From positions 1-23,490 of the IMG/VR virus record IMGVR_UViG_3300042516_003330: a stretch of 23,490 nucleotides of DNA. The stretch is one strand, 5' to 3'. The notes beneath the pieces are model-generated. The model made no database searches, was not told where the DNA came from, and was given only the letters and a program-made list of their open reading frames with translations. The stretch is from a virus. The position numbers and the translations under genes are program-made. Shown one piece after another: positions 1,459 to 19,871 of the stretch (its first letter is position 1; every line of letters begins with the position of its first letter).

Positions 1459-4400
1459 ATGCCATCATGGAATCGCGTCATAGTGTCAGGCTCTAATGCC
1501 TCACTAAATTCATTAACAGTCACTTCAGGAATCACCGGATCATTATTAGGTACAGCTTCATTTGCTAGAACAGCATCATATTTAAATCAATTAAATCAAG
1601 CTGTAATTGTAACCGGTTCGTATAATTTACAAGCAAGCACTGGGCAGAACCTGTTCTTTAATAGTAGCGGTCAAATAGGTAGTTCAGGAACGGGCACACA
1701 TATTACAATATCACCAAGTACTAACGTAACGTCTTTTGGCCAAGTAGTTAGTATTAATAACGGAATGAATGTAACACCTGGTGCTAATCAAGCTACATTA
1801 GGATTAGGTGTAACAGTAGGTGCATATCCTGCAGCAACGATAGCAAGATTTTCTTCAGGATCAGTAACAGCATTAGCAATATCCGGATCTGGAATGACCG
1901 GTACCGGATCATTTAATTATTCCGGAAATATAAACGCAACATCATTTACGGGATCATTATTAGGTACAGCATCATTTGCAGTATCAGCTTCATGGGCACC
2001 TGGTGGAACTGTTTTTCCATTTACCGGGTCTGCACATATAACTGGATCATTAACCATAACGGGGTCACTTTCACAAGGATTTACATCATCTGCATCAGGT
2101 CTTTATTCTCACGCTGAAGGCGTTAACAATCGTGCAATTGGCTACGGAACCCATGCGGAAGGATACCTAACTAGAGCATATGGAGAGTCTAGTCACGCAG
2201 AAGGATGGCTTGCAAGTACATCTGGATCTTATTCTCATGCAGAAGGATATTTTACTCAAGCATCGGGAAGTGCTTCACACGCAGAAGGCGTTCAAACACG
2301 CACACTTGGCGATTTCAGTCATGCTGAAGGTAACGGCACTCAAGCAAATGGCTACGGAGCTCATGCCGAAGGTTCTGTCACATATGCAAATGGAGGAGGA
2401 GCTCATGCCGAAGGCAGCGGCACATATGCAGATGCAGATGTTTCGCACACCGAAGGACAAAAAACTGCAACTATGGACACAGGCGCTCATGCTGAAGGTC
2501 TTTTCACAACGGCGGGTGGTATACGATTACGTAACGCAGCTACTAGTAGTGGTGATTATTTCACTCAAACAGAAGTATATGTTCAAGGAGATGTATTATC
2601 ACAATATCCAAATTCAGCAGTTGCGGGCGCATACATACATTTCCAGGTACAATACACAACGACGCCACCAGCACCAACCGACGACCCATATGATGTTGTT
2701 AATACTACAATATTGTCATCATCGTACGATTCTGGTACAAATATTACAACGTTGACAATACCAACAATGTCAAATTATGCATCATTAGACGCCCTCAGCG
2801 GCGCAGCTACATATGTGTTTCTTGAAAATCAAGAAGAATCACAAACATGGAATACATTCTATGGAAGCAATGCACACGCCGAAGGATATTTTACAACGGC
2901 AACGGGACGATATTCACACGCAGAAGGAGGTGAATCAAAAGCATTAGGACTTTCTTCACATGCTGAAGGCGCTGGCACTATTGCATACGGCACCGGATCG
3001 CATGCTGAAGGCGTCGGCAGCACAACGGGTCGCAACGACGCATATTTAATAGATTCTACTAGTAGTCCCATTAATGGTATTACAGAAATTATAGTTAATT
3101 CAAAGTATGGCAATATAACTAGTTCTCTCGCTGCGGGAAATTATATACAATATTATGAAACAACCGGACTCGGATATGCTCCTGCTCTAATATCTTCATC
3201 CATTTGGACAACGCCAAATACAGTAATTAATGTATATGGACCCAATCTCTCTGGCTACACCGGCGGAAGTATTGCATACGCTACCTCTACTAGTACAGGA
3301 GATTATGAAACCGGCGGCAATGGGGCGCATGCAGAAGGCTCATATAATCAATCATATAATGATTATAGCCATGCTGAAGGCCGTACTAATTTTGCCATTG
3401 GACAATATTCGCATGCTGAAGGCCGTTCTAATATTGCATATGGAGATGGATCGCATGCTGAAGGAAACCAAAACGAAACACGCGGTGTTTTCAGTCACGC
3501 AGAAGGCTTTAACACTATTGCATATGCATTTAATTCTCATACAGAGGGCGAAGGTACACTTGCTGGGGGCTGGGGTTTGCAAACTCCGGAGGTGATTTCT
3601 GGAGCTTTCATTTTAGAACAAGCCGGCGATGTTACATCATATTTCACAAACGGTGTTGAGATTGTTTTACACGATATCAATACGCTAATCGCGTCAGAGC
3701 CAACCGCATACGTTTTTACGGTTGATTACTCAACCTGGGATGGTAATAAAACTGTTGTTACCTTAACTGACACATCTTTAACACTTGCTAGCAAGTGTAT
3801 AATTGGGATATATGGACAGCCACAAGCTTTTAGTTGGATTGAAGAAACATATGGTAACGCATCACACGCAACAGGCGTTAGCAGTGTAACCATAGGAAAC
3901 TATTCATACGTCGCCGGCGATAATAATATAGCATTAGGATGGAAACAACATGTTGTTGGTAAATTCAACCAAACAAGTTCCAAAGCAGGTGCATTCATTA
4001 TAGGAAATGGTGCCGAAGGCGTAGGCCGAAACAATTTAATGTTAGCATATGATAATCGAGTTGAAGTAACTGGATCTGTAATGGCAACAATGGGCTTCAC
4101 CGGATCACTTCTAGGAACAGCATCATATGTAACAAATGCAGCAACAGCATCATTCCTATTAGGAAGTGTTGCATCAGCATCATTTGCAACTACCGCAGCA
4201 ACTGCATCATTCCTATTGGGAAGTGTTGCATCAGCAACATCAGCATCAGTTGTTAGTATTACAAACAATGTCTCAACCAACGCAACATATTATCCAACAT
4301 TTGTTTCATCAACGAGCGGCCATCAACAAATACAAGTTGATTCAAGTAATCTTACATGGAATCCAAGTACAGACACATTAACAGCTGCAAATTTTGCCGG

Positions 4401-5016
4401 TAATGCATCAACTTCTACAACAGCATCATTTGCTGCTACAGCTAGAACTATATACAATGCTTCTCCTGCAGAAACTCAAAATGATAATTATATTTTATTT
4501 AATTCACCTAATCAAAATGCATATAATACAGCAGCAACAGATTCAACATTAGTATTTAATCCTACATCAGTAACATTATCCGCAAGAAATTTTCGAAGTA
4601 CTACTTCATTGACAGTTTCAGGATCAACCATTTTAAGTGGATCAACTAGTATGTTTGGAAATGTTAATATATCAGGTTCAACAATTGTATCGGGGTCATT
4701 GCGAGGTGTTGTTATGTTACCAACAATAACAACAAATACAGCATCATTAGATTTTTCTAAAGCAAACTTCTTTACATGTTCATTAGCCAATGGTGTTACC
4801 ACACACGTATCTGCATCAAATTATTTACCAGGACAAACAATAAACATGTTGATTGTACAAGGATCTGCAGGTACTGGAAAAGTATCATTCCCGGCAGCAT
4901 TTAAATCAGGTTCATTATATACAGGCTCTGCTGTTGCCAACGCAGTTGATATAGTTACATTCATCACATTTGACACTACAAATATTTATTTAAGTGCAAT
5001 AAGAAATTTAAAATAA
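1459..5016 (+). CDS. Long tail fibre / adhesin with YadA-like head repeats
   Basis: 1185 aa; the ATG is preceded by AAGGAA. Residues 1-210 hold the N-terminal MPSWNRVIVSGS segment and GSLLGTASFA repeats, a fibrous shaft likely to attach to the tail. Residues about 217-354, 471-523 and 622-700 carry about 20 copies of a 14-residue (S/A)H(A/T)EG repeat. This is the signature of the left-handed beta-roll of YadA-type trimeric adhesin heads, so the protein is probably a trimer. Degenerate copies run to about residue 838. Three inserts of about 100-116 residues (355-470, 524-621, 701-801) interrupt the array and look like divergent copies of one domain. Further ASFA repeats, the VDSSNLTW module shared with the left-edge fibre, and a C-terminal tip domain (about 1080-1185) follow. 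The role in host binding is inferred. Confidence 0.85.
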   Translation: MPSWNRVIVSGSNASLNSLTVTSGITGSLLGTASFARTASYLNQLNQAVIVTGSYNLQASTGQNLFFNSSGQIGSSGTGTHITISPSTNVTSFGQVVSINNGMNVTPGANQATLGLGVTVGAYPAATIARFSSGSVTALAISGSGMTGTGSFNYSGNINATSFTGSLLGTASFAVSASWAPGGTVFPFTGSAHITGSLTITGSLSQGFTSSASGLYSHAEGVNNRAIGYGTHAEGYLTRAYGESSHAEGWLASTSGSYSHAEGYFTQASGSASHAEGVQTRTLGDFSHAEGNGTQANGYGAHAEGSVTYANGGGAHAEGSGTYADADVSHTEGQKTATMDTGAHAEGLFTTAGGIRLRNAATSSGDYFTQTEVYVQGDVLSQYPNSAVAGAYIHFQVQYTTTPPAPTDDPYDVVNTTILSSSYDSGTNITTLTIPTMSNYASLDALSGAATYVFLENQEESQTWNTFYGSNAHAEGYFTTATGRYSHAEGGESKALGLSSHAEGAGTIAYGTGSHAEGVGSTTGRNDAYLIDSTSSPINGITEIIVNSKYGNITSSLAAGNYIQYYETTGLGYAPALISSSIWTTPNTVINVYGPNLSGYTGGSIAYATSTSTGDYETGGNGAHAEGSYNQSYNDYSHAEGRTNFAIGQYSHAEGRSNIAYGDGSHAEGNQNETRGVFSHAEGFNTIAYAFNSHTEGEGTLAGGWGLQTPEVISGAFILEQAGDVTSYFTNGVEIVLHDINTLIASEPTAYVFTVDYSTWDGNKTVVTLTDTSLTLASKCIIGIYGQPQAFSWIEETYGNASHATGVSSVTIGNYSYVAGDNNIALGWKQHVVGKFNQTSSKAGAFIIGNGAEGVGRNNLMLAYDNRVEVTGSVMATMGFTGSLLGTASYVTNAATASFLLGSVASASFATTAATASFLLGSVASATSASVVSITNNVSTNATYYPTFVSSTSGHQQIQVDSSNLTWNPSTDTLTAANFAGNASTSTTASFAATARTIYNASPAETQNDNYILFNSPNQNAYNTAATDSTLVFNPTSVTLSARNFRSTTSLTVSGSTILSGSTSMFGNVNISGSTIVSGSLRGVVMLPTITTNTASLDFSKANFFTCSLANGVTTHVSASNYLPGQTINMLIVQGSAGTGKVSFPAAFKSGSLYTGSAVANAVDIVTFITFDTTNIYLSAIRNLK
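2107..3558 (+). repeat. Array of about 20 HAEG beta-roll repeats in three blocks
   Basis: A 14-residue (about 42-base) unit centred on HAEG or HTEG recurs about ten times at 2107-2520, four times at 2871-3027 and six times at 3322-3558. Decayed copies (SHATG, SYVAG, QHVVG) lie near 3862-3970. Codons for the motif vary (cacgctgaagg, catgccgaagg, cacgcagaagg), so the array is old or under protein-level selection rather than recently amplified. Confidence 0.85.
4138..4236 (+). repeat. Near-identical 42-base direct repeats in fibre gene
   Basis: Copies at 4138-4179 and 4195-4236 differ at only two third-codon positions and encode AATASFLLGSVASA twice, with a period of 57 bases. The near-identity points to a recent in-frame duplication in the fibre shaft. 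A related 20-base block (GGATCATTATTAGGTACAGC) is exact at 1537-1556 and 1951-1970, with a diverged form near 4102. Confidence 0.85.
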
Positions 5017-5017
5017 T

Positions 5018-7342
5018 ATGTTTACACCATTTGCTTTTATACAAGATGCAGCGGCAGAAGCAGTTGCTAACGCATTACGTACGTTATATATAGGTGGTGA
5101 ATTTACTACATATAATACAACTAATACGGGCAAAATCCTAAGAATATTTACAGATGGCACTGTAGACACAACATTTATTTCTGGGTCTGGATTTGGTGGC
5201 AATGGGCCACAAGTTATTATGTCACAATCAGACGGCAAAATTATTGCTAGTGCATTTACTGCACAAGGATATAGTGGATCATTTACGCATGGCGACGGCT
5301 TTGTACGTATTAATACTAATGGTACTGTAGATCCAACATTGCAAGGGCCATTTGGATTTACCGGTAATGCATGGACATTAGTAACTGCGTCCTCCGGACT
5401 TTATATTGGCGGCGGATTTACATCATATAGCAGTTCTACAGCTCGAAATTTAATCCGGGTTAACACGTTCGGCCAGATAGATACAACATGGAAACAACGA
5501 ATTGGAGCTAGTAGCACCGTACGTAGTATTGCAACACAAAGTAATGGCAAGATTATTGTTGCTGGCGGGTTTACATCATATAGCAGTTCGTTTGCAAATT
5601 ATCTTGCTAAAATTGATAGATTCGGCGATGTAGATACAACATTCAATACAGGTATTGGATTTAATTCTGCCGTTTACTGTGCAGCTACTCAAAGTGATGG
5701 AAAACTTGTAGTAGGTGGATCATTTACGTCATATAGTGGATCATCTATTAATAGAATTGCTCGATTAAATACTGACGGAACACTTGATACAACTTTTAAG
5801 CCAGGAGCTGGTCCAAATGGGATTCCTTCAGCAGTTGTAGTTTTTCCTAATGGTAAAATTGTAATTGGTGGAGGAATTACAACATATAGTGGGTCATCTA
5901 GAAATAATATAATTGGAATTAATTCTAATGGTACACTTGATACAACATTTAATATAGGAACCGGTGCAAACGCTGCTATTTTGAATGGATTAGTTGATTC
6001 CACCGGCAAAATTATTGTCGTTGGAGAATTTACAACATATAGTGGTTCTGCTAGAAATGGAATTATGCGATTAAATTCCGATGGTACACTTGATACGACA
6101 TTTAATGTCGGCACGGGATTATCTGGGTCTTCAGCTTCAGGATCAATTGGTGGATATTGTATAACCATGGATTCTAGTAGTAGGCTACTAGTAGGAGGAC
6201 CATTTACTAGATATAGTAGTTCAGCAGCTCCGGCAAGAAATCGAATGGCTCGTATTAATACTAATGGTACGTTAGATACTACATTTGCAATGGCAGGTAC
6301 CGGGTTTTCAAGTTACATAATATCGGTAGCTACACAACCTGACGGTAAAATTTTAGCAACCGGAGCATTTACTACAATCAATGGTGCTAGCACAACTAGA
6401 ATTACTAGATTAGATAGCAATGGCACCGTTGATACATCTTTCAAAGGAACCGGATTCACATTAGGAATAAATGCTGTTAATAGTAGTATGTTTAATCAAA
6501 TGTTATCAATTTCATCTTCTGGCAATATTACTCTTACAGGAAATTTTTCAACATATAGTGGATCTAATTTTCTTGTTAATAATATAACACAACTTACACC
6601 ATCCGGCAGTATCAATACTAATTTTATAACTGGGTTGAATAGTACTAGCAGTGCTGCTGGATTAACACCATCAGGCGATGTTGGTCATTTATTGGAAACA
6701 TCAACCGGAAAAATATTTATATTTGGAAGCGGATTCACATCATATAAATATAATCCATATGTTATGCGACTTAATACTAATGGCACTATAGATAATACAT
6801 TTCAAATAGGACGAGGTCCAAATTTCGATGTATATAAAGTAGCCGTGCAAACAGATGATAAAATTATTTTAGTTGGGCCATTTACACAATGGCAAGGTGC
6901 TGCTAATAATAATAGAATCATTCGATTAAATAGTGATGGCACTAAAGATACAACATATAACATCGGTGCAGGACTTAATTCTACTCCAATTGATATGAAA
7001 TTAACTCCAGATAATCGAGTTGTAGTTATTGGACAATTTACAACATACAGTGGCTCATCTAGAAATTATATAGTTCGAATTAATACCAATGGAACATTGG
7101 ATACTACGTATAATATCGGAACAGGATTCGGCGCATCGCCAACGGCATTCGGAGACGCTACAAATACAGCTCTTGCTATTGATAGTGGATCTAATGCGTA
7201 TGTAGGAGGAAATTTTACAACATACAGTGGTTCATCAATCAATAGAATTGTAAAAATATCTACTTTTGGTTCAATTGATACATCATTTAATGTTGGTGCT
7301 GGAGCTAATAATTATATATCTACAATTCAATTAATGTATTAA
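5018..7342 (+). CDS. Delta-60 repeat beta-propeller protein (774 aa)
   Basis: The start is one base after the previous stop, with no Shine-Dalgarno, so translation is probably coupled. From about residue 23 to 760 the protein consists of about 14 repeats of 50-55 residues. Each has a core such as GKIIVVGEFTTYSGS, then an RN-I-x-R-(L/I)-N stretch, then (D/N)GTLDTTF. This is the delta-60 (DUF5122) repeat, predicted to form blades of a beta-propeller; 14 copies could make two seven-bladed propellers. There is no signal peptide or transmembrane segment, which suits a virion component rather than a secreted host protein. Position after the large fibre gene suggests a fibre tip or side-receptor protein that binds a surface glycan or protein; the ligand is unknown. 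Confidence 0.8.
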   Translation: MFTPFAFIQDAAAEAVANALRTLYIGGEFTTYNTTNTGKILRIFTDGTVDTTFISGSGFGGNGPQVIMSQSDGKIIASAFTAQGYSGSFTHGDGFVRINTNGTVDPTLQGPFGFTGNAWTLVTASSGLYIGGGFTSYSSSTARNLIRVNTFGQIDTTWKQRIGASSTVRSIATQSNGKIIVAGGFTSYSSSFANYLAKIDRFGDVDTTFNTGIGFNSAVYCAATQSDGKLVVGGSFTSYSGSSINRIARLNTDGTLDTTFKPGAGPNGIPSAVVVFPNGKIVIGGGITTYSGSSRNNIIGINSNGTLDTTFNIGTGANAAILNGLVDSTGKIIVVGEFTTYSGSARNGIMRLNSDGTLDTTFNVGTGLSGSSASGSIGGYCITMDSSSRLLVGGPFTRYSSSAAPARNRMARINTNGTLDTTFAMAGTGFSSYIISVATQPDGKILATGAFTTINGASTTRITRLDSNGTVDTSFKGTGFTLGINAVNSSMFNQMLSISSSGNITLTGNFSTYSGSNFLVNNITQLTPSGSINTNFITGLNSTSSAAGLTPSGDVGHLLETSTGKIFIFGSGFTSYKYNPYVMRLNTNGTIDNTFQIGRGPNFDVYKVAVQTDDKIILVGPFTQWQGAANNNRIIRLNSDGTKDTTYNIGAGLNSTPIDMKLTPDNRVVVIGQFTTYSGSSRNYIVRINTNGTLDTTYNIGTGFGASPTAFGDATNTALAIDSGSNAYVGGNFTTYSGSSINRIVKISTFGSIDTSFNVGAGANNYISTIQLMY

Positions 7343-10523: not shown

Positions 10524-11039
10524 ATGGCATTAACACCAACATTACCAGATATTAGCCAAAGTGATTTATTTGATAGTGCATTTTCGTGGGAACCGAAATA
10601 TGCTAATAGATTTATCATGCAATTAGCTGGAACAAATATACCTGCATATCTAATTAAAGCAGCAGCTCGTCCATCAATGACAAATGGCGAGATTGTTTTA
10701 GATCATATCAACGTTGACCGCAAGGTTAAAGGAAAAAGCCGTTGGAATGATGTTTCTATCACATTGTATGATCCTATTACAAGTGAAGGTGCACAAAATG
10801 TAATGGAATGGGTACGTTTCCACCACGAATCATTAACAGGTCGCGATGGTTATTCATCAGATTACAAACGCAATATAGAATTTTATTCATTATCTGCATT
10901 AGGTGAGAAGATTGAAAACTGGACATTGCAAGGTGCTTTTATCTCTGAAGCAAATTTTGGTCAAATGGATTGGGGAACAGAAGAAGCTGTAACAATTGAG
11001 TTGACATTGAAATACGATTACGCAATATTACAATACTAA
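10524..11039 (+). CDS. gp19: Tail tube protein (gp19-like)
   Basis: 171 aa, close to the 163 of T4 gp19. Recognisable tube-family segments include FSWEPKYANRFIMQL near the N-terminus, then DRKVKGKSRWNDVSITLYDP and the C-terminal strand set WGTEEAVTIELTLKYDY. The protein stacks as hexameric rings to form the inner tail tube, on which the sheath assembles and through which DNA passes. It has its own promoter-like motif and terminator, so it can be expressed at the high stoichiometry tube assembly needs. The order sheath, tube, chaperone, tape measure is standard for myoviruses. There is nothing unusual in the sequence. Confidence 0.95.
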   Translation: MALTPTLPDISQSDLFDSAFSWEPKYANRFIMQLAGTNIPAYLIKAAARPSMTNGEIVLDHINVDRKVKGKSRWNDVSITLYDPITSEGAQNVMEWVRFHHESLTGRDGYSSDYKRNIEFYSLSALGEKIENWTLQGAFISEANFGQMDWGTEEAVTIELTLKYDYAILQY

Positions 11040-11116: not shown

Positions 11117-11881
11117 ATGAGTGGAATGACAGACCGAATTGCAAATCAAGATTTAGTACAATTAGCAAAGGCTCAATACGAGCAACAAAAGCGTAGTACA
11201 ATCCCATCAGAAATTATCAAATTAGTAAGTAACGGAATGATGTATCCTATAGATCATCCACTTCGTAACGGAACTATAGAAATGCGTTACATGACAGCAT
11301 ATGATGAGGATATTTTAACTAATCCATCTTATATGCGCGAAGGCGTAGTTTTAGACAAATTATTAGAAGCATTAATTGTAACACCTGTTGATTATTCAAC
11401 TATTACAAAAATTGACAAAAATGGTTTGATCATTGCAGCACGTATTCTAAGTTATGGAAAAGATTATGATGTCATAGTAATTGACCCGGATACAAAAGCT
11501 GAATTAAAACGTGTAGTTGATTTAACTAAATTAAAAAATTCAGAATTTAATTTGCAATCAGATGATAATGGTGAATTTGAATATGTATTACCTGATAATA
11601 CAGTTTTAAAATTTAAATTTTTATTGAATAGCGATGATATTGCTGATATGAAAATTTCACAATTTTTAGAAAAAACAATATGTCAAATCAATGATTCTAG
11701 AAAAATAGATGATATTCGCGATTTCATTCGTTACAAATTCTTAGCTATTGAATCAAAAAAATTCAGACAATATATTGTAGAGAATACACCTAGTATTTTA
11801 ATGTCATATGAATTTGAAGGTGAAAATGGAGGCACCTTCACAGCAGGGTTTCCGCTTGGAACAGACTTTTTTTGGTTTTAA
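11117..11881 (+). CDS. gp26: Tail assembly chaperone / baseplate hub assembly protein (gp26-like), short form
   Basis: 254 aa. After a helical N-terminus (residues 1-25) come SEIIKLVSNGMMYPIDHPLR, the T-A-Y-DE-D-ILTNPSYMREG stretch and several short acidic segments. This is the layout of the T4 gp26 / T4-baseplate family (209 aa in T4), which helps assemble the central hub. It sits between the tube and tape-measure genes, where tail chaperones usually lie. The frame ends at 11879 immediately after T-runs, and an overlapping +1 frame continues for over 70 residues. The short protein is therefore probably one of two products, as in the lambda G/GT system. Family assignment rests on motif memory and position. 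Confidence 0.75.
   Translation: MSGMTDRIANQDLVQLAKAQYEQQKRSTIPSEIIKLVSNGMMYPIDHPLRNGTIEMRYMTAYDEDILTNPSYMREGVVLDKLLEALIVTPVDYSTITKIDKNGLIIAARILSYGKDYDVIVIDPDTKAELKRVVDLTKLKNSEFNLQSDDNGEFEYVLPDNTVLKFKFLLNSDDIADMKISQFLEKTICQINDSRKIDDIRDFIRYKFLAIESKKFRQYIVENTPSILMSYEFEGENGGTFTAGFPLGTDFFWF
11867..11881 (+). other. Candidate programmed +1 frameshift site
   Basis: In the chaperone frame the codons read GAC TTT TTT TGG TTT TAA. Two places allow a Phe tRNA to slip +1 and re-pair perfectly: the seven-T run (11867-11873), and TTT-T at 11876-11879 with the TAA stop waiting in the A site, as in bacterial prfB. Either leads into the +1 frame (AAA CCA GAA...), giving a 326-aa fusion. A -2 slip on the seven Ts is also possible. 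GGTT/AACC flanks the stop but is too short for a convincing stimulatory hairpin. Confidence 0.6.
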
Positions 11882-12098
11882 ACCAGAAGATCGAGTAACA
11901 CTTCATGAAAGCCTTTTTAATTTAGTATGGCATGGCGCTGGTAGATGGGACTGGAATACATTATACAATATGCCAGTATATATTCGTAGATTTTGGATAT
12001 CGAAAATAAATAAAATGCAAGACGATGCTGCATATGCAGCAGACCAAGCTAGAAGAAAAAAGAAGTCTAAACCAAACATCGTAAAATCTCCATTGTAA
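11874..12098 (+). CDS. +1-frame C-terminal extension of the tail assembly chaperone
   Basis: This frame supplies about 74 residues after the slip site (GFKPEDRVTLHESLFNLVWH, then W-D-W-N-T-L-YNMPVYIRRFWISKIN) and a Lys-rich tail (RRKKKSKPN). It ends just before the tape-measure promoter motif. The W...L..MP-x-x-x-RR-(F/Y) pattern is what I associate with the second, frameshift-encoded part of tail assembly chaperones in T4-like phages. The first in-frame ATG (11808) lies inside the chaperone frame and has no ribosome binding site, so independent initiation is unlikely. A single-base error in the seven-T run would also produce this split. Confidence 0.65.
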   Translation, partial: GFKPEDRVTLHESLFNLVWHGAGRWDWNTLYNMPVYIRRFWISKINKMQDDAAYAADQARRKKKSKPNIVKSPL

Positions 12099-12108: not shown

Positions 12109-12126
12109 AAAATGGAATTGAAAACG

Positions 12127-13824
12127 ATGCAATCAGAAAATCAGTTAAAGTTAATTAAGCATTTGAAAATGCAACCTAAACAAGGTAGCGATCCATTAGG
12201 CGATGTAGCAAAACAGCTGAAGGGTATTTTTGATTCATATAAACAAGGTGGCCAAGACATTGCCCGCGAAAATGTATTTGGTTTTTTAGCTAAACAAGCA
12301 CAAGATGTTTATGAAAAACTAAATGTATTAGAAGAACGAAATTACAAAGTACAAACTGGATTTAAACTTAGTACAAGAGAAGCTGCAAGATTAGGTCAGC
12401 AATTTGATAGTTTAGGTAAAAGTATTGGTGCTAATTCTGATAAATTAAAAACATATTTAGTAGACTTAAATAAAACATTTGCTGGACAAGCAAAGTTCTT
12501 TAGAGAAGGAGAAGCATTTACTACACAGATTTCAAAAGAAACAGATCTAATACGAAATAAACTAAAAGTATCTGATGATGCATTTCAAGGATTTTTAAAA
12601 TTTCAAGTAACTGCAAATAAAGAATCTCAAAAAGGCAATTTAGCTAATCAATTTATAAAAAGCGGTGATGCAGTTGCACAATTGGCCCAAGAAGTATCTG
12701 AATTTTATACCGGTGCAATTACTGACTTGGTTGAAGGATTAGGATCATTGCCAGCTTCAATTCAAGCTACAATGGGTCAATATCCAAAACAATTAGGTTT
12801 AGCTGTATTAAAATCTAAACAATTGGGTTTATCATTAGAAAAAGTTCAAGGTGTTGCTGAGGGCATGTTGGATATAGAAAAAGCAATTGGGGCAGAGATT
12901 GAATACCAAATTTTATCAGGAGAAGAATTAACAACCACTTCTGGAGAAAGTTTAACTGCTGAATTACAAAAAGCAGCTATACAACAAGATGCAAATAAAC
13001 AAGTTGATTTATTAACTGATTTTTTAGGAAAAAATGGTGAGAAATTAAAAGATAATATTTATTTAGCCAACCAAGTTGCAGATATGTTTGGATTAAGTAA
13101 AGACGAATTATTTGGAGCATATCAACAACTACAAGCAAATCAAGAAATTTCTGAAAGATTATTTAACCAACAAACAAACAATGATGCAAAGATTACTACA
13201 TCATTACAAGAACAAGTTGATTTAGCTGACCAACGTACTCAAAAAGAAATATTAGCTGATGACGCACAACAAGCATATGTTAAAGAATTATTATCCGCTT
13301 ACGGCACACCAGAAAAAATGGAAGAGCAAGTTATTAAATTAGCAGAAATAGGTGCAAAAATGCAAACCGCTGCATTAACTAATGCCGACAAGTTAGTAAA
13401 ATCATTTGAAAATAGTGAGTTCGTAAAGTTTGTCTTTGGCACCGGCGGGTTTGTGAAAACAATAAAAGATGCATTTGACTTAATAACTACAGGCAATATC
13501 GATGGATCTAAAGGATCGATTGGTGAAAGCACCGGAACAACAGCAGCAACAGCAGAAGGAGATATTTTTATCCCAGGTAGCGGTACCGGCAATATCGTAC
13601 GAGGTCCAAAAGGATCTTTTGCATTAGACCCAGATGATGATATAATTGCAATGCCTAATGCACGACAAGCTTTAGCAAATCGAGGTGGCGGAGATACATC
13701 GGCTGTAATAGCAGCATTAAAAGGAATGTCATTTCATGTTACAAATGTATTTGATGGCGATAAAATACGATCTAGTTTGCAAATTCGCCAAGGACAACAA
13801 CTTAATAATACTAATATAGTATAA
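12127..13824 (+). CDS. gp29: Tape measure protein (gp29-like)
   Basis: 565 aa from the preferred ATG at 12127 (570 from 12112). T4 gp29 has 590. GGA (12114-12116) lies about ten bases upstream of the chosen start. Most of the protein is long, Gln/Lys/Glu-rich helix (residues about 5-450) with scattered hydrophobics and no Cys, as expected for an extended rod that sets tail length and passes through the tube. The C-terminal part has a Gly/Thr-rich linker, GSGTGNIVRGPKGSFALDPD and D-D-IIAMPNA, a tape-measure tail-end motif. It follows the chaperone gene, which would coat it during assembly. Similar length to T4 suggests a T4-sized tail of about 100 nm. Confidence 0.8.
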   Translation: MQSENQLKLIKHLKMQPKQGSDPLGDVAKQLKGIFDSYKQGGQDIARENVFGFLAKQAQDVYEKLNVLEERNYKVQTGFKLSTREAARLGQQFDSLGKSIGANSDKLKTYLVDLNKTFAGQAKFFREGEAFTTQISKETDLIRNKLKVSDDAFQGFLKFQVTANKESQKGNLANQFIKSGDAVAQLAQEVSEFYTGAITDLVEGLGSLPASIQATMGQYPKQLGLAVLKSKQLGLSLEKVQGVAEGMLDIEKAIGAEIEYQILSGEELTTTSGESLTAELQKAAIQQDANKQVDLLTDFLGKNGEKLKDNIYLANQVADMFGLSKDELFGAYQQLQANQEISERLFNQQTNNDAKITTSLQEQVDLADQRTQKEILADDAQQAYVKELLSAYGTPEKMEEQVIKLAEIGAKMQTAALTNADKLVKSFENSEFVKFVFGTGGFVKTIKDAFDLITTGNIDGSKGSIGESTGTTAATAEGDIFIPGSGTGNIVRGPKGSFALDPDDDIIAMPNARQALANRGGGDTSAVIAALKGMSFHVTNVFDGDKIRSSLQIRQGQQLNNTNIV

Positions 13825-18548: not shown

Positions 18549-19871
18549 ATGATAGTGGATTGTATAGAAGATGTATTGAGTACAATTAAGTACATACAAG
18601 GTCGCAAAACTTTGTTAGTGCCCATATTTTGTAGTCCATCGCTTCATGCAAGTATCAATCCGTTGTGCGCAATATACATTTATACGGAAGATGATATAGA
18701 AAGATTGATTCCTATTCGTCATACTGAACAACTAAGGGGCTTCCCTGAACATGTAAGTGCTTTTTTAGAATTGGAGAATATCTTTGTTCATGACAAGAAG
18801 CAGTGGCTTCAAATAGGAGGTAATGGGTCTGTATTGGATGTGAAGGCATTGTGGTGGTATACATATAATGAAGCATATGATGAAGGACATTATCCAACAG
18901 CTGCTCATCAATTTTATTGGAGACGGCATCATGGTTTAGCTCAAGTTAATGCAATTGTTCCAATGCAACAACATTTAGCAATGTGTCAAAAGATTCGTCA
19001 TTATGCTTGGCCAATGTGTATGAATGCAGAACAGACACAATCATATTTGCAATTCAATGCACAATACCCACAAGTATTTGCAATGATTGAAAAGCAAGGT
19101 TTGCAAGTAACAGATGAATTTAGAATGCCAGAATTGATTAAAGATGGTCGTGTTTATTCGCAGTATAATTATTATACAATGACCGGTCGACCTAGTAATG
19201 CATATCGAGGATTCAACTTTGCGGCAATGAACAAAGAAGATGGTACGAGAGCAGCATTTTGTAGTAGGTTTGCAAATGGCGCATTAGTTGAAATGGATTT
19301 CGATTCATATCACGTTAGATTGATTGCACGTTTAATTGGTTATGATTTACCTACATCATCTATACATGATTATTTAGGTAGATTTTATTTTGGCACTGAT
19401 GAATTAACAGACGAACAACGAGATGAAAGCAAACAAATAACATTTCGATTGTTATATGGAGGCATTGATTCCGAATTTTTATCAATTCCATTCTTTCAAA
19501 AGGTAAATACATTTGTATATGATCTTTGGGCAAAATGGAAAGCAAAAGGACGTATTGAAACACCGATATTGAAACGACCTATTACCAAGGATATGGTAAA
19601 AAATATGACAGCAAATAAATTGTTTAATTACTATTTGCAAGCAACAGAAACAGAAGTATCCGTACAAAAATTACAACAAGTACAAGACATATTAAAAGAA
19701 CGCGAAACGGTTATGATACTTTATACATATGATTCAGTATTATTTGATGTACCCATAACTGAAGCAAAAGAATTGCTACCTAATATCAAAGAAGTATTAG
19801 AGCAAGGCAACTTTCCGGTAAAATGTAAAGTTGGCAATATTTATGATAAAATAAAAACTATATCTTTATGA
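18549..19871 (+). CDS. Divergent family A DNA polymerase
   Basis: 440 aa, with no clear Shine-Dalgarno. The C-terminal half has the family A palm and fingers signatures: TGR at 212-214; motif A MDFDSYHVRL with D250; motif B R291-K295-F299-Y303-G304 (spacing as in E. coli PolI R754/K758/F762/Y766); and motif C YTYDSVLFD with D395. Both metal-binding aspartates are kept. The residue matching E710 is His255, and H-D-E of motif C is Y-D-S. The N-terminal 150 residues include HDKK and LDVK segments that may be a decayed or minimal 3'-5' exonuclease, but I see no full exonuclease motif set. Total length is much shorter than PolI (928). T4 uses family B gp43, so this may replace it or be a repair or translesion enzyme. 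It is coupled to the next gene by ATGA. Confidence 0.8.
   Translation: MIVDCIEDVLSTIKYIQGRKTLLVPIFCSPSLHASINPLCAIYIYTEDDIERLIPIRHTEQLRGFPEHVSAFLELENIFVHDKKQWLQIGGNGSVLDVKALWWYTYNEAYDEGHYPTAAHQFYWRRHHGLAQVNAIVPMQQHLAMCQKIRHYAWPMCMNAEQTQSYLQFNAQYPQVFAMIEKQGLQVTDEFRMPELIKDGRVYSQYNYYTMTGRPSNAYRGFNFAAMNKEDGTRAAFCSRFANGALVEMDFDSYHVRLIARLIGYDLPTSSIHDYLGRFYFGTDELTDEQRDESKQITFRLLYGGIDSEFLSIPFFQKVNTFVYDLWAKWKAKGRIETPILKRPITKDMVKNMTANKLFNYYLQATETEVSVQKLQQVQDILKERETVMILYTYDSVLFDVPITEAKELLPNIKEVLEQGNFPVKCKVGNIYDKIKTISL

What the first reader, a model, noticed from the sequence alone, without database searches (positions are those of the whole stretch)
11867..11881. Probable programmed +1 frameshift in a T4-like tail assembly chaperone
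The gp26-type gene stops at 11881, while the +1 frame continues for over 70 residues with a MPVYIRRF motif typical of chaperone extensions. Two slip-competent sites are present: seven Ts, and TTT-TAA, where a stop codon waits in the A site as in prfB. The gene lies between tube and tape measure, the usual place for frameshifted chaperones (lambda G/GT). Frameshifts in these genes are classically -1 (some -2), so a +1 event with a stop-codon pause would be notable.
Basis: partly seen in the sequence, partly recalled or inferred. Interest (0 to 1): 0.72.

Follow-up and report, generated by a model that had tools for sequence, protein, structure and literature searches.

The report
Plus-one frameshift in phage tail chaperone
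A T4-like phage gene needed to build the tail appears to make two proteins from one gene by letting some ribosomes skip one base at a run of Ts; the same arrangement is kept in hundreds of related phages, including two cultured ones, although the published T4-like examples I could find use a backward slip or two separate genes.

Summary
A T4 gp26-type tail assembly chaperone gene (11117-11881, Pfam PF12322) ends at TAA just after GAC TTT TTT TGG TTT. The +1 frame runs on to 12098 and encodes a conserved extension. It is not a sequencing artefact: 236 of 242 non-redundant relatives (including Flavobacterium phage immuto and Microcystis phage Mel-JY01) keep the split, the +1-frame extension and a slip site of consensus YTT YTT TGG. 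The extension is under purifying selection in the +1 frame only (dN/dS about 0.12). Third codon positions inside the site are almost invariant. In 59 of the 236 no start codon exists from which the extension could begin.

Every site variant allows a +1 slip with acceptable re-pairing; six (TTC TTT TGG, TTT CTA TGG) allow +1 but not -2 under simple pairing rules. Sites without a long T run (TTTCTTTGG) argue against polymerase slippage. No RNA structure or Shine-Dalgarno-like stimulator was found.

Best reading: programmed +1 ribosomal frameshift giving the chaperone's long form, a new variant of a known kind. No protein evidence exists yet, and -2 cannot be excluded for the window's own T7.

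The parts
11117..11881 (+). TAC-N: T4 gp26-type tail assembly chaperone, zero-frame product, 254 aa
   Evidence: PF12322 E 2.5e-7 and phrog_150 E 1e-10; 40 of 40 aligned relatives hit phrog_150; predicted fold (pLDDT 88.5) matches T4-like baseplate hub models in BFVD, E 3e-12 for the best named hub subunit
11867..11875 (+). Slip site TTT TTT TGG (zero frame); +1 slip of tRNA-Phe on TTT with TGG in the A site, next codon GGT
   Evidence: Two Phe/Leu-type codons then TGG/TAY in all 236 non-redundant relatives; third positions near-invariant (1.84 and 1.78 bits against about 0.1-0.3 in the preceding region); all variants +1-competent
11876..11881 (+). TTT TAA: zero-frame end of TAC-N just after the slip site; not a conserved slip site
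   Evidence: Near relatives have ATT TAA, GTT TAA, TCT TAR; stop lies 4-8 codons from the first slip codon across relatives
11874..12098 (+). TAC-C: +1-frame extension (GFKPEDRV...VKSPL, 74 aa), translated after the frameshift
   Evidence: Purifying selection only in this frame (dN/dS 0.115, against 0.96 and 1.94 in the other two); helix-loop-helix model pLDDT 83; conserved G, GxG, YxxP and R positions
10524..11039 (+). Tail tube protein upstream (context)
   Evidence: phrog_4542 E 3.9e-26, PF06841 E 2.9e-5
12112..13824 (+). Presumed tape measure downstream (context, position only)
   Evidence: No family hit; the syntenic gene is annotated tail tape measure in Flavobacterium phage immuto

Best explanation
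The gene makes two chaperone forms. Most ribosomes read TAC-N and stop at 11881. A fraction, with peptidyl-tRNA-Phe on TTT and the next codon (TGG, Trp) waiting to be decoded, slip forward one base (TTT to TTT), read GGT in the +1 frame and add TAC-C, giving a 326-residue TAC-NC with the junction ...TDFFGFKPEDRV.... As in lambda G/GT, TAC-N would coat the tape measure while the rarer TAC-NC recruits tube subunits. Shown: conserved split, coding +1 frame, conserved slip site, a single TAC-N copy per genome, relation to T4 gp26. Inferred: that the shift happens, its direction (+1), its rate, and the chaperone roles.
For: Conservation in 236 of 242 non-redundant loci, including two cultured phages. 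Codon periodicity switches frame at the site. dN/dS 0.115 in the +1 frame of the extension. Slip codons end in T far beyond codon usage: first-codon Leu is CTT in 44/44 against 17% background, second-codon Leu CTT in 44/47, Phe TTT 187/190 and 180/189 against 77% (relatedness not corrected). All 236 variants have a +1-competent codon with no mismatch; six (TTC TTT TGG, TTT CTA TGG) have no -2-competent codon. No usable start codon for the extension in 59 of 236, and a +1-frame stop within 3 codons upstream of the restart codon in 22. Large contigs and complete phages with the split hold one TAC-N gene each; T4 has two PF12322 genes.
Against: No protein or ribosome-profiling evidence. For the window's own T7, and for 230 of 236 relatives, -2 at the second codon is also possible. 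No single slip codon explains all variants: +1 at codon 2 fails for TTT TTC TGG (9) and TTT CTA TGG (3), so some lineages would have to slip one codon earlier. No stimulator was found: no conserved downstream structure, and the SD-like signal 9-13 bases upstream is accounted for by a conserved Gly codon.
Confidence: 0.77

Rival explanations
1. Programmed -2 ribosomal frameshift at the second slip codon (TTT to TTT two bases back), giving TAC-NC with one extra Phe (DFFFGF); -2 shifts are known for Mu-type tail chaperones (own knowledge).
For: -2 re-pairing without mismatch is possible in 230 of 236 variants, including the window and TTT TTC TGG, where +1 would need the first codon. The T at the third position of the first codon (98.7%) is what -2 needs.
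Against: TTC TTT TGG (14 loci, 3 non-redundant) gives a middle-base mismatch for -2, and TTT CTA TGG a third-position mismatch; both keep the extension intact and allow +1. Second-codon TTC is depleted (9/189 against about 23% expected), which -2 does not predict.
Confidence: 0.15
2. RNA polymerase slippage on the T7 run yields a subset of mRNAs with one U fewer (or two more), fusing the frames without any ribosomal shift.
For: Seven Ts in the window; poly-A/T runs are known transcriptional slippage sites (PMC3711429).
Against: 44 non-redundant relatives have TTT CTT TGG or TTT CTT TAC, 3 have TTC TTT TGG and 3 have TTT CTA TGG, with no run over four Ts, yet keep the same split.
Confidence: 0.04
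3. The extension is an independently initiated gene (termination-reinitiation or internal start), not a fusion.
For: The window has an ATG in the +1 frame at 11808. Two related contigs (L258/L432, L263/L433) carry the C domain as a separate ORF with its own ATG a few bases after the TAC-N stop, matching the C-domain profile at about 80 bits. Mel-JY01 is annotated as two CDSs.
Against: No ATG/GTG/TTG is available in 59 of 236 lineages, and the +1 frame is closed by a stop within 3 codons upstream in 22. In the two exceptional contigs the slip site has decayed (TTC TTG TAT, TTC CTT TGG), as expected if it is kept only where fusion is needed.
Confidence: 0.03
4. Sequencing error or variable T tract, the gene really being one 326-aa frame.
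For: Homopolymers are error-prone.
Against: Same split in 236 non-redundant loci from independent assemblies and in two isolate records, including sites without homopolymers.
Confidence: 0.01

Closest known systems
Phage lambda gpG/gpGT (and HK97, P2-type) tail assembly chaperone -1 frameshift
   Same: Position between tube and tape measure, short and extended chaperone forms, slip near the end of the short form
   Different: Shift is into the +1 frame, no -1 heptamer use, and the protein belongs to the T4 gp26 family (PF12322)
T4 gp26 and gp51 (PF12322), and Vladimirov et al. 2022 (Virology 566:9; only the title was seen, full text not held)
   Same: Same protein family; gp51 is a longer paralogue
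   Different: T4 encodes two separate genes; the phages here carry one TAC-N gene plus a +1-frame extension
Cyanophage, Rhizobium and Pseudomonas T4-like gp26 with a gp51-like extension in the -1 frame (L275-L278)
   Same: Homologous locus type with an extension following gp26 in another frame; T TTT TTC at the overlap in the cyanophage
   Different: Extension lies in the -1 frame; homology of the extension itself is weak (8 bits or less)
prfB (RF2) +1 frameshift, CUU_UGA_C with an SD stimulator
   Same: +1 slip of a pyrimidine-rich P-site codon onto UUU; the Flavobacterium-type site CTT TGG C differs from CTT TGA C by one base
   Different: A-site is a sense codon (TGG/TAY), no SD stimulator found, no autoregulatory stop
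Listeria phage PSA/A118/A500 +1 frameshifts in cps and tsh; HSTV-2 tail chaperone, likely +1 (PMC5009743)
   Same: Phage structural or assembly genes using +1
   Different: CCC proline slip codons in the Listeria phages, different genes; HSTV-2 is an archaeal virus
Pakpunavirus Adele tail chaperone, conserved GTTTTT, proposed -1 (PMC12846349)
   Same: Myovirus tail chaperone with a T-rich slip site, supported by the same kind of comparative argument
   Different: -1 frame, different site

Membership tests
Tail assembly chaperone with programmed frameshift (lambda G/GT type) | Gene between tail tube and tape measure | tested here: met
   tube upstream by family hit; tape measure by synteny with immuto
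Tail assembly chaperone with programmed frameshift (lambda G/GT type) | Second frame open across the end of the first, conserved and under protein-level selection | tested here: met
Tail assembly chaperone with programmed frameshift (lambda G/GT type) | Conserved slippery sequence at the overlap | tested here: met
Tail assembly chaperone with programmed frameshift (lambda G/GT type) | Both products made, at an unequal ratio, and absent from the virion | not testable with these tools
   Needs proteomics
T4 gp26/gp51 family (PF12322) | Match to the family profile above its cut-off | tested here: met
   31 bits against cut-off 24.5; 25 of 40 relatives E<1e-3 in Pfam, 40 of 40 in phrog_150; fold match to T4-like hub models
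T4 gp26/gp51 two-gene arrangement | Two separate PF12322 genes in one genome | tested here: not met
   One copy in each of 10 genomes or large contigs of relatives; T4 control gives two. The window itself is only a 23-kb fragment
Classical -1 tail chaperone frameshift | Extension in the -1 frame after a XXXYYYZ heptamer | tested here: not met
   Extension is in the +1 (equivalently -2) frame
prfB-type +1 frameshift | Stop codon in the A site | tested here: not met
   A-site codon TGG 229, TAC 5, TAT 2
prfB-type +1 frameshift | Shine-Dalgarno-like stimulator about 3 bases upstream of the P-site codon | tested here: not met
   No enrichment at that spacing

The most novel reading that the evidence does not exclude
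A large clade of aquatic T4-like phages uses a structure-free +1 frameshift at UUU/CUU with a Trp sense codon in the A site, as a third way, besides -1 frameshifting and two separate genes, of making the long tail chaperone; the shift may depend on slow decoding of UGG.
Probability: 0.65. Interest if true: 0.66.

Novelty: new variant of a known kind. Interest (0 to 1): 0.56.

Why it matters
The T4-like tail chaperones have been described as departing from the frameshift rule (title of Vladimirov et al. 2022). Here the same family shows a frameshift in the opposite direction to lambda's, kept across hundreds of uncultured and two cultured phages. One gene family then has three solutions (-1 frame, +1 frame, two genes), plus a lineage where the C domain has become a separate gene and the slip site has decayed. 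That makes the family a natural test of what sets frameshift direction. It also gives a set of bacterial +1 sites with no stop codon and no evident stimulator, testable in simple reporters, and it corrects annotation: the extension is largely unannotated in immuto and called a separate hypothetical protein in Mel-JY01.

Tried and rejected
Slip at TTT-TAA: rejected, not conserved. Downstream RNA structure: per-sequence folding gave mean z between -0.1 and -1.1, only weakly below control stretches (about -0.4) at +25 to +100, and RNAalifold found no convincing consensus helix in three clades. SD stimulator: a weak G-rich signal 9-13 bases upstream is accounted for by a conserved Gly codon. Foldseek of the TAC-N model against PDB: no match with E below 0.6. 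Profile comparison of TAC-N with one cyanophage gp26: weak (probability 13%). Vladimirov et al. 2022 is not held, so its content is not used beyond the title and how others cite it. Host assignment of the window was not attempted beyond noting relatives from Flavobacterium and Microcystis.

Full report
Observation. The window contains a 254-codon ORF, 11117-11881, ending GAC TTT TTT TGG TTT TAA. The seven Ts are 11867-11873. The +1 frame is open through the stop to 12098. The ORF matches PF12322 (T4_baseplate, 31 bits, cut-off 24.5) and phrog_150, downstream of a tail tube gene. T4 gp26 and gp51 both belong to PF12322.

Conservation. Relatives were collected from IMG/VR and from phage records. 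In the first 80, every complete case has the same split, including five contigs nearly identical to the window. Across 489 loci reduced to 242 at 90% identity over 180 bases, 236 carry the extension in the +1 frame after a site of two Phe/Leu-type codons and TGG or TAY. Four of these also have a slightly longer open -1 frame, but for the two inspected the conserved C-domain motif lies in the +1 frame. The six set aside are two related contigs with a separately started C gene (L432, L433), a locus with an early stop (L462), and three distant or odd loci (L083, L084, L085), of which L083 and L085 also have their extension in the +1 frame. Isolates: Flavobacterium phage immuto (AGC TTT CTT TGG CCT) and Microcystis phage Mel-JY01 (AAC TTT TTT TGG CCT).

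Coding. Information content per base peaks at zero-frame first and second positions before the site, is high through TTT TTT TGG including third positions, and then follows the +1 frame. In the window's clade dN/dS over the extension is 0.115 in the +1 frame and about 1 to 2 in the others; in TAC-N it is 0.25 in the zero frame. The extension is predicted as helix, loop with GxG, and a long helix. TAC-N is predicted well (pLDDT 88.5) and matches predicted T4-like baseplate hub proteins, with no solved counterpart found.

Direction. The frame alone cannot separate +1 from -2. Site variants can, in part. Re-pairing was scored with the usual anticodons, allowing G-U. Counts of non-redundant loci: TTT TTT TGG 125, CTT TTT TGG 44, TTT CTT TGG 43, TTT TTC TGG 9, TTT TTT TAC 4, TTT CTA TGG 3, TTC TTT TGG 3, TTT TTT TAT 2, one each of GTT TTT TGG, ATT TTT TGG, TTT CTT TAC. 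Every variant has a +1-competent codon without mismatch. TTC TTT TGG and TTT CTA TGG have no -2-competent codon under these rules. TTT TTC TGG, in contrast, would slip +1 only at its first codon and -2 at its second. So +1 explains all variants but not always at the same codon, and -2 explains 230 of 236. I put about 0.77 on +1 and 0.15 on -2. The first-codon Leu is always CTT (44/44 against 17% background), which +1 at codon 2 alone would not need; either both codons can slip or pairing in the E site matters.

Other mechanisms. Polymerase slippage is argued against by sites lacking a long T run (TTTCTTTGG). Independent initiation is excluded where no start codon exists between the last +1-frame stop and 15 codons into the extension (59 of 236), and unlikely elsewhere. 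The exception is informative: in L258/L432 and L263/L433 the C domain has its own ATG just after the TAC-N stop, in the other frame, still matches the C-domain profile at about 80 bits, and the slip site has decayed to TTC TTG TAT or TTC CTT TGG. The prfB analogy with a waiting stop is not supported: none of the 236 has a stop codon in the A site after the slip codons.

Stimulators. No consensus RNA structure and no SD-like element at the prfB spacing. TGG is an uncommon codon in TAC-N (under 1 per 1000 apart from the site) but not rare in the window overall (9.7 per 1000), so a 'hungry codon' explanation is conjecture.

Known systems. Lambda G/GT and most published tail-chaperone cases are -1; +1 is published for Listeria PSA-group structural genes and inferred for HSTV-2 (PMC5009743), and 350 forward cases are annotated in SEA-PHAGES data (PMC10885494). 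A -1 site with GTTTTT is proposed for Pakpunavirus (PMC12846349). T4-like phages of cyanobacteria, Rhizobium and Pseudomonas have a gp51-like extension in the -1 frame. T4 has two genes. Ten genomes or large contigs of relatives tested have one TAC-N gene each.

Limits. Everything is comparative sequence evidence. Counts are not corrected for shared ancestry, and the binomial p-values are descriptive only. The best-80 limit per scan means the sample is not a census. The tRNA repertoire of the hosts is unknown, so the re-pairing rules are generic.

Noticed in passing
L258/L432 and L263/L433: Two related contigs carry the C domain as a separate gene with its own ATG right after the TAC-N stop; the slip site has decayed.
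   Followed up: yes
L275-L278 (Synechococcus phage Sf-FS3, Rhizobium phages IC12 and RL38J1, Pseudomonas phage Cygsa01): The gp51-like extension after gp26 lies in the -1 frame; in Sf-FS3 the overlap has T TTT TTC, a classical -1 heptamer. Annotated as separate genes.
   Followed up: partly
L085 (Listeria phage LIS04, record 50415-51143): Gp26-like gene with a +1-frame extension matching the C-domain profile weakly (18.5 bits), at GAG TTT TTT AGT.
   Followed up: partly
L081 3776-4012 (Mel-JY01) and L082 3719-3958 (immuto): The extension is annotated as a separate hypothetical protein in Mel-JY01; in immuto only a 36-aa hypothetical CDS overlaps its end.
   Followed up: yes
window 5018-7342: 774-aa protein with DUF5122 beta-propeller repeats (PF17164, E 1e-125) in the structural region.
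   Followed up: no
window 1459-5016: 1185-aa protein with many SHAEG repeats resembling YadA-head (Hep/Hag) repeats; no Pfam hit at E 0.01.
   Followed up: no
window 18549-19871: 440-aa protein with a family A DNA polymerase match (PF00476, E 1.7e-12) directly downstream of the tail region, followed by gp32-like (22219) and RecA-like (22999) genes.
   Followed up: partly
L462 TAC-N: TAC-N ends early (GAC ATG AAG TTC TAA) with no slip site; possibly a contig error or a broken copy.
   Followed up: no
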